Assembly (NCBI GenBank): GCA_902795615.1
Contig: CADBLQ010000011.1
Span: forward strand, 1 to 59,426
Reading direction: 5' to 3'
From: an uncultured Pseudomonadota bacterium
Lineage (GTDB): Bacteria; Pseudomonadota; Alphaproteobacteria; RUG11792
Length of the DNA: 59,426 nt
Numbering within the stretch: position 1 is the first letter of the stretch; each line of letters begins with the position of its first letter. The notes below the pieces were generated by a model, which saw only the letters and a program-made list of their open reading frames with translations, ran no database searches and had not been told where the DNA came from. A program made the position numbers and the translations under genes. Shown piece by piece: positions 21,309 through 59,426 of this stretch.

Positions 21309-21393
21309 TCGGGAGGAGAGGGTTTGTTCAAGGAGATGCTCCTTGCCGAACGACTGTAAGGCGTCACGAGCTATCAGCGAGTAATCCTCTTCT
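21309..21393. repeat. tRNA-like palindromic repeat, copy 1 (long form)
   Basis: This copy starts with TCGGGAGGAGAGGG, nearly the 3' end of the nearby tRNA-Pro gene as seen on this strand. It folds into a closed structure: outer stem AGAGGGTT (21317-21324) with AATCCTCT (21383-21390); arm 1 GTTC-AAGGAG (21326-21335) with CTCCTT (21339-21344) and GAAC (21348-21351); arm 2 CGACT-GTA-AGGCG; arm 3 GCT-ATC-AGC. Copy 3 at 59217 shares the same middle and right half. It does not encode a protein. A mobile or RNA element derived from a tRNA is the best guess. Confidence 0.6.
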
Positions 21394-21425
21394 GTTTTTT
21401 GAATTGGTAAAAGAACCCTTACCTT

Positions 21426-21480
21426 TGGTCGGGAGAAGGGGATTTGTTCAAGGAGATATTCCTTGCCGAATCATCTTCTC
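21426..21480. repeat. tRNA-like palindromic repeat, copy 2 (short form)
   Basis: This copy starts with TGGTCGGGAGAAGGGG; read on the minus strand that is ...CCCGACCA, a tRNA acceptor end with an encoded CCA. The outer stem GAGAAGG (21433-21439) pairs with TCTTCTC (21474-21480), and the inner arm is AAGGA (21450-21454) with TCCTT (21460-21464) inside GTTC/GCCGAA. It lacks the right half (arms 2 and 3) of the long copies. TTAATACTAGTAA follows, similar to the sequence after copy 3. Confidence 0.6.
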
Positions 21481-21513
21481 ATTAATACTAGTAAGGAGTT
21501 GTTAACAAAGTCT

Positions 21514-21587
21514 CGGGAGAAGAGGATTTGAACCTCCGACCCCTTGCACCCTAAGCAAGTGCGCTATCCAGGCTACGCCACCTCCCG
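21514..21587 (-). tRNA. trnP: tRNA-Pro, anticodon AGG
   Basis: The 74-base minus-strand gene folds as a full cloverleaf. The acceptor stem CGGGAGG/TCTCCCG has the proline identity pair C1-G72 and A73; the D arm has AGCCTGGATA; the anticodon stem CTTGC/GCAAG holds the loop TTAGGGT; the T arm has GGTTCAAATC. The anticodon is therefore AGG, reading CCU. Bacterial proline tRNAs normally carry UGG, GGG or CGG, so A34 is unusual and would need conversion to inosine or unmodified wobble. CCA is not encoded, unlike the two other complete tRNA genes here, so the cca gene product (41336-42427) would be needed. Confidence 0.85.
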
Positions 21588-59046: not shown

Positions 59047-59216
59047 GTTACAACAACGAATGCCATCCATAGTTAGAGGGTAGCATTTGTGTACTACTTG
59101 CACAACCATACAAATGAATTTTTTCTACAAGTCGTAATTTGGCAACTTATGCAAACTTCCTTAACTAGAGTACGCAATACAGAGTGTCGCGTAAACAGCC
59201 TCTACTATAGATATTA

Positions 59217-59289
59217 AAAGGATTTGTTTAACCAAAGTTTGCCGAACGACTGTAAGTCGGCACAAGCTACCTGCGAGTAATCCTCTCCC
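59217..59289. repeat. tRNA-like palindromic repeat, copy 3 (long form, 5' truncated)
   Basis: GCCGAACGACTGTAAG...CGAGTAATCCTCT (59241-59286) repeats the right half of copy 1 with few changes. The outer stem AGGATT (59219-59224) pairs with AATCCT (59279-59284); arm 2 is a perfect CGACT-GTA-AGTCG here, against one mismatch in copy 1. The leading TCGGGAGG is missing. TTAATACTAATAA follows, as after copy 2. Confidence 0.55.
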
Positions 59290-59322: not shown

Positions 59323-59373
59323 TCGGGAGGAGAGGATTTGTTCTGAGCTTTGGCTCAGCCGAATACTCTTCTC
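59323..59373. repeat. tRNA-like palindromic repeat, copy 4 (short form)
   Basis: This copy starts TCGGGAGGAGAGGATTTG. Its outer stem GAGAGGA (59330-59336) pairs with TCTTCTC (59367-59373). The inner arm is CTGAGC (59343-59348) with GCTCAG (59353-59358), a different sequence from copies 1 and 2 (AAGGAG/CTCCTT) but the same fold and the same flanking TTC/GCCGAA. This is covariation between copies and argues that the structure matters. Confidence 0.6.
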
Positions 59374-59404
59374 TAGTTTAAAAATGTGAAAGAAATATCA
59401 CTAT

Positions 59405-59426
59405 TGGTCGGGAGAAGAGGATTTGA
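59405..59426 (-). tRNA. 3' end of a tRNA, probably tRNA-Pro (cut by window end)
   Basis: Read on the minus strand the last 22 bases are TCAAATCCTCTTCTCCCGACCA: part of a T loop and T stem, acceptor strand TCTCCCG, A73 and an encoded CCA. The first 19 bases match the 3' end of tRNA-Pro(AGG) at 21514. Unlike the repeats, the sequence goes on as TTTGA, not TTTGTTC, so a true tRNA is more likely than another repeat, though only the next bases can tell. Confidence 0.5.

What the first reader, a model, noticed from the sequence alone, without database searches (positions are those of the whole stretch)
21309..21480. Apparently tRNA-derived repeat family with a conserved fold beside tRNA-Pro
Two copies here (21309, 21426) and two at the right end (59217, 59323) share the edge TCGGGAGGAGAGGATTTG, which is nearly the 3' end of tRNA-Pro as seen on this strand, and a common GCCGAAC core. 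The long copies fold into an outer stem plus three arms, like a cloverleaf; the short copies keep the outer stem and one arm. The inner arm covaries (AAGGAG/CTCCTT in copy 1, CTGAGC/GCTCAG in copy 4), and the outer stem shows pair changes (GAGAAGG versus GAGAGGA against TCTTCTC). This suggests selection on, or birth from, a structured RNA. Palindromic repeats are known in Rickettsia, but I know of none with a tRNA-Pro end; a SINE-like or MITE-like element descended from a tRNA is the inference. Traces of repeated integration at a tRNA 3' end are an alternative.
Basis: partly seen in the sequence, partly recalled or inferred. Interest (0 to 1): 0.8.

Follow-up and report, generated by a model that had tools for sequence, protein, structure and literature searches.

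The report
RtT-like palindromic repeats in tRNA tails
Behind certain tRNA genes of a reduced-genome rumen bacterium lie small hairpin repeats built from an inverted and a direct copy of that same tRNA's 3' end around a shared core, the layout found here in E. coli's RtT repeats but with an unrelated core, which suggests bacteria can repeatedly grow such repeats out of their own tRNA genes.

Summary
The repeats are real and belong to a larger family. All copies lie directly downstream, in transcript sense, of tRNA genes. In the window's genome 10 of 41 tRNAs carry them (Pro x3, Ser x4, Glu x2, Gln-TTG); in two genus-mates Pro and Ser-CGA do. A covariance model finds 16 copies in 35 genomes of the order, all in this genus and all in tRNA tails. 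Unit anatomy: tRNA..CCA, then a spacer of about 26-34 nt, an inverted copy of the tRNA's T-stem/acceptor 3' strand, a core hairpin, and a direct copy of the tRNA 3' end, sometimes in tandem. Cores are shared between tRNA types, while the flanks match the LOCAL tRNA. E. coli K-12 RtT repeats (tyrTV, serX, proK, argQ/Z/V, lysV) show the same logic with an unrelated core; Rfam RtT does not match here. So this is an RtT-like class, not a dispersed tRNA-derived SINE/MITE and not att remnants. Outer-stem changes mostly break pairs, so I infer local copying (template switching or tandem duplication) plus core exchange at the T-loop, then decay. The long 'cloverleaf' copies fold no better than shuffled sequence; the short ones do. 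Function is open. Novelty: new variant of a known but little-studied kind.

The parts
21513..21587 (-). tRNA-Pro (anticodon AGG), owner of the left array; its gene lacks the encoded CCA
   Evidence: ARAGORN and Rfam; sequence
21481..21512 (-). spacer between the tRNA 3' end and unit 1
   Evidence: sequence
21469..21480 (-). unit 1, inverted copy of the tRNA-Pro 3' strand (GAGAAGATGATT)
21446..21468 (-). unit 1, core hairpin CGGCAAGGAATATCTCCTTGAAC
21426..21445 (-). unit 1, direct copy of the tRNA-Pro 3' end including CCA (AAATCCCCTTCTCCCGACCA)
21394..21425 (-). spacer between units 1 and 2
   Evidence: sequence
21309..21393 (-). unit 2, long form: inverted arm 21383-21393, long core, short core hairpin, direct copy 21309-21325 (no CCA)
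59405..59426 (-). 3' end of tRNA-Pro (anticodon CGG); the rest of the gene is on contig C12, which overlaps this contig end by 85 nt
59323..59373 (-). unit 1 of the tRNA-Pro(CGG) array: inverted arm 59362-59373, core with CTGAGC/GCTCAG hairpin, direct copy 59323-59339
59213..59289 (-). unit 2 of the tRNA-Pro(CGG) array, long core, decayed direct copy

Best explanation
These are RtT-like tRNA-tail repeats. Shown: short units follow particular tRNA genes at a near-constant distance. Each unit is an inverted copy of the 3' strand of the tRNA's T-stem and the start of its acceptor stem, a core hairpin, and a direct copy of the tRNA's 3' end, often with CCA. Units and spacers can be reiterated. Cores are shared between tRNA types while the flanks match the local tRNA. 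Inferred: the flanks are made on the spot from the neighbouring tRNA gene, most simply by a there-and-back template switch (tRNA end, spacer, jump to the opposite strand, jump back), which leaves exactly tail-spacer-inverted tail-tail-spacer. Arrays then grow and shrink by recombination between the repeated tails. Cores move between arrays because every array flanks its core with the same T-loop-derived letters (GGATT and AAATCC). Also inferred: the array is transcribed as a 3' trailer of the pre-tRNA, where the short units form stable hairpins that are removed in 3' maturation. The outer stems decay without compensation, so a strong sequence-specific function of the outer stem is unlikely.
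For: Location and isotype pattern in three genomes. Flanks best match the local tRNA: 20/24 inverted arms and 19/21 direct copies score strictly higher against the local tail than against any other isotype. Cores are shared across types: TTCGGCAA..TTGAAC in Pro, Ser and Glu arrays; CGGATAAAAC-TTT-GTTTTG in both Pro-TGG and Ser-CGA of G001; the long core in Pro and Ser-CGA of G000. The spacer is duplicated with the unit at Glu, Gln and Ser-CGA. 16 model hits in 35 genomes, all in three genomes of one genus and all in tRNA tails, four of them units not used to build the model. Arms complement the 3' strand even at three tRNA wobble positions (Pro 7-66 and 49-65, Glu 50-64), so they are inverted copies, not relics of the 5' strand (sequences). 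Same architecture in E. coli at tyrT/V, serX, proK, argQ/Z/V and lysV. Decay pattern. No intrinsic terminator found on the transcript strand between tRNA and array.
Against: No transcript data. The conserved unpaired core letters (CGGC, GAACAAA) and the perfect, covarying inner hairpins hint that something acts on the core. One core copy in the second Glu unit (G000 C12:25444) has palindromic flanks (GATGCA..TGCATC) that do not match a tRNA. The template-switch step is inferred from the end state only; no intermediate such as an empty inverted arm without core was seen.
Confidence: 0.68

Rival explanations
1. A mobile element: the core is a miniature parasite that transposes or retro-copies into tRNA tails and regenerates its flanks from the target tRNA.
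For: Cores shared across Pro, Ser and Glu loci within a genome; lineage-specific spread (10, 4 and 2 loci in three genus-mates); sequence-conserved unpaired core letters.
Against: All strict core matches in G000, 2 of 4 in G001 and 1 of 3 in G002 lie in tRNA tails, and the rest have no comparable hairpin; the model finds none elsewhere; no target-site duplication recognised; flanking genes checked in the window are housekeeping genes or lack a Pfam match; short shared T-loop letters suffice for exchange by recombination.
Confidence: 0.15
2. A functional trailer RNA: the hairpins steer 3' processing or termination of selected pre-tRNAs, or are released as small RNAs, as reported for rtT RNA of E. 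coli (from memory).
For: Short units fold better than shuffles; inner hairpin covaries; restricted to certain tRNA types; annotated small RNAs lie in E. coli tRNA tails (rttR; 3'ETS-leuZ).
Against: Outer stem decays without compensation; units absent from most relatives and from many isoacceptors; long copies not better than shuffles; no Rfam match in the window arrays.
Confidence: 0.2
3. Decayed tandem duplicates of the tRNA genes, from which the D and anticodon arms were deleted.
For: Tandem position; direct copy of the 3' end; T-stem sequence before the core. A true partial duplicate exists in a relative (L224: 33-nt copy of tRNA-Ser 3' end, no inverted arm).
Against: The 5' arms match the complement of the 3' strand rather than the tRNA's own 5' strands at wobble positions (Pro 7 and 49, Glu 50), and read ATT rather than TTC at the T-loop edge (sequences); cores are not tRNA interiors (no tRNA call by ARAGORN or Rfam).
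Confidence: 0.05
4. att-site remnants of an integrase that inserts at tRNA 3' ends.
For: Exact direct repeats of tRNA 3' ends are the usual mark of such integration (general knowledge; the repeats themselves).
Against: Units of about 50-120 bp at ten loci of four isotypes; inverted copies are not expected; no integrase among the flanking genes checked; same plan in E. coli RtT arrays without integrases in the annotated loci.
Confidence: 0.03

Closest known systems
RtT repeats of E. coli (Rfam RF00391; tyrT/tyrV, proK, serX, lysV, and the related argQ/Z/V tails)
   Same: Directly downstream of tRNA genes; spacer, inverted T-arm copy, core, exact copy of the tRNA 3' end with CCA; tandem units; flanks follow the local tRNA while the core is shared.
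   Different: Core unrelated by sequence (no RF00391 match; core alignments at shuffle level); E. coli units are longer (e.g. 178 bp at tyrV) and their inverted copy runs further into the T-arm; tRNA set differs (Pro, Ser, Glu, Gln here; Tyr, Ser, Pro, Arg, Lys there); alphaproteobacterial instead of gammaproteobacterial.
Rickettsia palindromic elements (RPE)
   Same: Small palindromic repeats in a reduced alphaproteobacterial genome.
   Different: RPEs are dispersed, many inside ORFs (from memory); here every copy is in a tRNA tail and the flanks follow the tRNA.
MITEs and tRNA-derived SINEs
   Same: Short, non-coding, with inverted ends or a tRNA-like end.
   Different: No dispersal, no recognised target-site duplication, ends not constant but copied from the neighbouring tRNA.
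3'ETS-leuZ type tRNA-trailer small RNAs of E. coli
   Same: Lie in the 3' trailer of a tRNA transcript (annotated).
   Different: No copy of the tRNA's own 3' end was found in that trailer.

Membership tests
RtT (RF00391) | Matches the Rfam covariance model | tested here: not met
   No match over the cut-off in 24 genomes including G000-G002; none at E<=5 in the window arrays; E. coli control rings
RtT (RF00391) | Directly downstream of a tRNA gene, with an exact copy of its 3' end | tested here: met
   E. coli comparison
RtT (RF00391) | Inverted T-arm copy between spacer and core; flanks follow the local tRNA, core shared | tested here: met
   here; in E. coli
RtT (RF00391) | Tandem reiteration of unit plus spacer | tested here: met
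   Glu-TTC, Gln-TTG, Ser-CGA (G000 and G001) and the Pro arrays
RtT (RF00391) | Transcribed and released as a stable RNA | not testable with these tools
   No expression data
Rickettsia palindromic elements | Dispersed through the genome, including inside coding genes | tested here: not met
   All model hits in tRNA tails; the only other strict core-pattern matches, in G001 and G002, lack a comparable hairpin
MITE | Constant terminal inverted repeats, target-site duplications, dispersal | tested here: not met
   Ends vary with the adjacent tRNA; no dispersal; target-site duplications looked for by eye only, none recognised
tRNA-derived SINE | tRNA-homologous body with promoter, dispersed by retro-copying | tested here: not met
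   No tRNA match in the units; no dispersal
Integrase att-site remnants | Integrase or island between direct repeats of a tRNA 3' end | tested here: not met
   Units of about 50-120 bp; flanking proteins are a tRNA synthetase, NDK, UDP-glucose dehydrogenase family, antiporter, or without Pfam match

The most novel reading that the evidence does not exclude
Two bacterial classes independently host self-propagating elements that live only in tRNA tails: a small core that copies itself from one tRNA gene to another and each time acquires inverted and direct flanks from its new host tRNA, for example by a tRNA-end-primed copying step, so that RtT is one case of a general, unrecognised kind of element.
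Probability: 0.14. Interest if true: 0.85.

Novelty: new variant of a known kind. Interest (0 to 1): 0.58.

Why it matters
E. coli's RtT repeats have looked like a local oddity of enterobacteria. Finding the same plan (inverted tail, core, direct tail, flanks matched to the neighbouring tRNA, core shared between tRNAs) with an unrelated core in a reduced alphaproteobacterial genome suggests that tRNA genes recurrently generate such arrays, by a common mutational route or for a common purpose. That makes an old, neglected puzzle testable: scan all tRNA tails in all genomes for copies of their own 3' ends, and delete the arrays in laboratory E. coli.

Tried and rejected
(2) Pattern scan of 84,980 species' genomes with the core (GATTYGGCAA..TTGAACAAATC): of 19 matches only L165, a rumen MAG contig (RUG12940) whose length equals G001's contig C8, lies beside a tRNA; the other 18 and the 10 viral matches are unrelated, the viral ones one conserved phage stretch. 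(3) tRNA-Pro, tRNA-Ser(GGA) and tRNA-Glu loci of 35 family genomes: no units outside the genus; partial tRNA-Ser matches were mostly ordinary tRNA-Ser genes of other isoacceptors. (4) Homology of the long core with E. coli RtT in either orientation: not above shuffles, despite a shared GCGAGTAATCC at the junction. (5) The long core as a tRNA relic (7-nt loop CTTACAG): no ARAGORN or Rfam support. (6) Literature searches found no account of this architecture in the open papers held; older RtT papers are not in that library, so whether the inverted arm of RtT was noted before is not established. (7) Swapped-tail controls are inflated by real neighbouring tRNAs in clusters; the cleaner control is downstream versus upstream.

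Full report
WHAT IS THERE. The window is the whole of contig C11 (59,426 bases) of a 759-kb genome in 25 contigs. The four repeats reported at 21309, 21426, 59217 and 59323 exist. On the minus strand, which is the sense strand of tRNA-Pro(AGG) at 21513-21587, they form a tail behind the tRNA gene. The right-hand pair likewise forms the tail of tRNA-Pro(CGG): the last 85 bases of the window are identical to the end of contig C12, which carries that gene. A third array follows tRNA-Pro(TGG) on contig C5; over the stretch compared it is 135/137 identical to the right-hand array of the window.

THE FAMILY IS LARGER THAN PRO. For every tRNA gene collected in this genome (41) and two genus-mates (40 and 33) I looked for its own last 22 nt, direct and inverted, in the 300 nt on either side (a stricter ungapped version with controls). 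In the window's genome ten tRNAs are positive downstream: Pro AGG, TGG and CGG; Ser GCT, TGA, CGA and GGA; Glu TTC and CTC; Gln TTG. (Arg-CCT also scored 10 in the looser test, but that match is the end of the next tRNA, Phe.) In G001 the three Pro tRNAs and Ser-CGA are positive, in G002 Pro CGG and TGG. None is positive upstream in the strict test. A covariance model built from 12 short units was run over all 35 genomes held for the order. It found 16 copies in G000, G001 and G002 only, all in tRNA tails, four of them units that were not in the model. Direct inspection of tRNA-Pro, tRNA-Ser(GGA) and tRNA-Glu tails elsewhere in the family found none, so the feature is confined to one genus as far as sampled.

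ANATOMY. In transcript sense a unit reads: tRNA ... CCA, spacer of about 26-34 nt, inverted arm, core, direct copy of the tRNA 3' end. A clean example is tRNA-Glu(TTC): CCTACGGGATT-CGGCAATC-TTT-GATTGAAC-AAATCCCGTAGGAGACGCCA, in which the last 20 letters equal the tRNA's own end and the first 11 are the complement of AATCCCGTAGG. The direct copy carries CCA in many units. At Glu-TTC, Gln-TTG and Ser-CGA the spacer is repeated along with the unit. Cores are shared between tRNA types: TTCGGCAA...TTGAAC in Pro, Ser and Glu arrays; CGGATAAAAC-TTT-GTTTTG in both Pro-TGG and Ser-CGA of G001; and a longer core with two extra arms in two Pro arrays and Ser-CGA of the window's genome. The flanks, in contrast, follow the neighbour: 20 of 24 inverted arms and 19 of 21 direct copies score strictly best against the local tRNA rather than any other isotype (units were delimited by hand).

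INVERTED COPY OR REMNANT OF A TRNA? Because tRNA stems are themselves complementary, the inverted arm could in principle be the 5' strand of a shrunken duplicate tRNA. Wobble pairs decide. The tRNA has G at Pro 7 (window genome), G at Pro 49 (all three genomes) and T at Glu 50, each facing a wobble partner; the arms have A, A and C, the exact complements of the 3' strand (sequences). The arms also read ATT, the complement of the 3' part of the T-loop, and not TTC. So the arm is an inverted copy of the 3' strand.

SELECTION OR DECAY. In the 12-unit alignment the structure shows covariation well above shuffled and slid controls. In the outer stem this mostly reflects the different host tRNAs. 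When each unit is compared with its own tRNA, 15 of 23 changed positions break the pair, 6 give G-U and 2 (both in one unit with an uncertain alignment) are compensated. That is what unconstrained decay after copying would give. The inner hairpin is different: it is nearly always perfect and changes on both sides (6 of 12 cells at one pair), so it either matters or is kept palindromic by the mutation process. Short units fold better than shuffles (z -3.7, -2.8), the long ones do not (z -0.4, -0.6). The cloverleaf reading is therefore not supported.

THE PRECEDENT. From memory, E. coli tyrT has 178-bp repeats that each hold the last 19 nt of tRNA-Tyr (RtT). I fetched the locus and found the full plan there: spacer, inverted copy GGGGAAGGAT, core, exact copy AATCCTTCCCCCACCACCA, three times behind tyrV and once between tyrT and tyrV. 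The same plan occurs at serX (two units), proK, argV/argZ/argQ and lysV. The flanks are made from Ser, Pro, Arg or Lys tRNA respectively, and most share the core (...AACGTTGC..GCAACGGCCCGAAGGGCGAG...), with serX and lysV variants. Rfam's RtT model hits the Tyr, Pro, Ser and Lys units but not the Arg units at its cut-off. The RtT model finds nothing in the window's genome or its relatives and the cores do not align above shuffles in either orientation. The two families work alike but are not shown to be homologous.

HOW IT PROBABLY ARISES. Inference: a there-and-back template switch at a tRNA tail would leave tail-spacer-(inverted tail)-tail-spacer in one event, which is the observed order, and repeated tails then allow arrays to expand and contract. 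Because every core is bordered by T-loop-derived letters (GGATT on one side, AAATCC on the other), cores can be exchanged between arrays of different tRNAs by short-homology recombination while the outer flanks stay local. This accounts for shared cores with local flanks, for lineage-specific sets of affected tRNAs, and for decay of the outer stems. The arrays lie in the transcript direction of the tRNA with no intrinsic terminator found between, so they are probably transcribed as trailers; whether they do anything is open. In the predicted fold of tRNA-Pro(AGG) plus unit 1 the copied tail competes with the true tail for the acceptor 5' strand. That is a possible route to an effect, but the whole fold is no better than shuffled.

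CAVEATS. Metagenome-assembled genomes; some arrays sit at contig ends. Units were delimited by hand. No expression data. The open-access library lacks the classic RtT papers, so prior notice of the inverted arm in E. coli cannot be excluded.

Noticed in passing
window 59342-59426 and contig C12 end (L015, L051): Contig C11 (the window) and contig C12 overlap by exactly 85 nt in the tRNA-Pro(CGG) tail, so the two contigs join there; C3 and C15 likewise both end inside near-identical tRNA-Ser tails. The arrays break the assembly.
   Followed up: yes
window 21509-21516 and 21426-21428: tRNA-Pro(AGG) of this genome lacks the encoded CCA that its genus-mates' AGG genes have, while the copied tail in unit 1 keeps CCA. 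All three genomes have Pro AGG, TGG and CGG; no GGG gene was seen.
   Followed up: partly
L021, about 160 nt downstream of tRNA-Glu(TTC) (G000 C12:25444-25464): A core copy with palindromic flanks that do not match a tRNA (GATGCATTTATACGTTCGGCAATCTTCGATTGAACAACTTTTGCATC). It does not fit the rule that flanks copy the local tRNA.
   Followed up: no
L306 (E. coli K-12 argQ/argZ/argV tails): Three tRNA-Arg tails have RtT-like units with the same core as proK and tyrTV but fall below the cut-off of the Rfam RtT model.
   Followed up: partly
L224 / G005 C28:9706-9738: A relative's tRNA-Ser(GGA) is followed by a 33-nt exact copy of its 3' end without an inverted arm, perhaps a first step towards such an array.
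   Followed up: partly
window 21341-21383 and 59240-59283 (minus strand): The long core has a 7-nt loop CTTACAG (ATTACAG beside tRNA-Ser-CGA) that resembles an anticodon loop, and a junction GCGAGTAATCC identical to the E. coli RtT junction on the other strand. Neither is supported as homology.
   Followed up: yes
L114 (G002, tRNA-Pro AGG tail): The spacer shared by the other two Pro tails of G002 is present here without a recognisable unit, as if the unit had been lost or had never formed.
   Followed up: no
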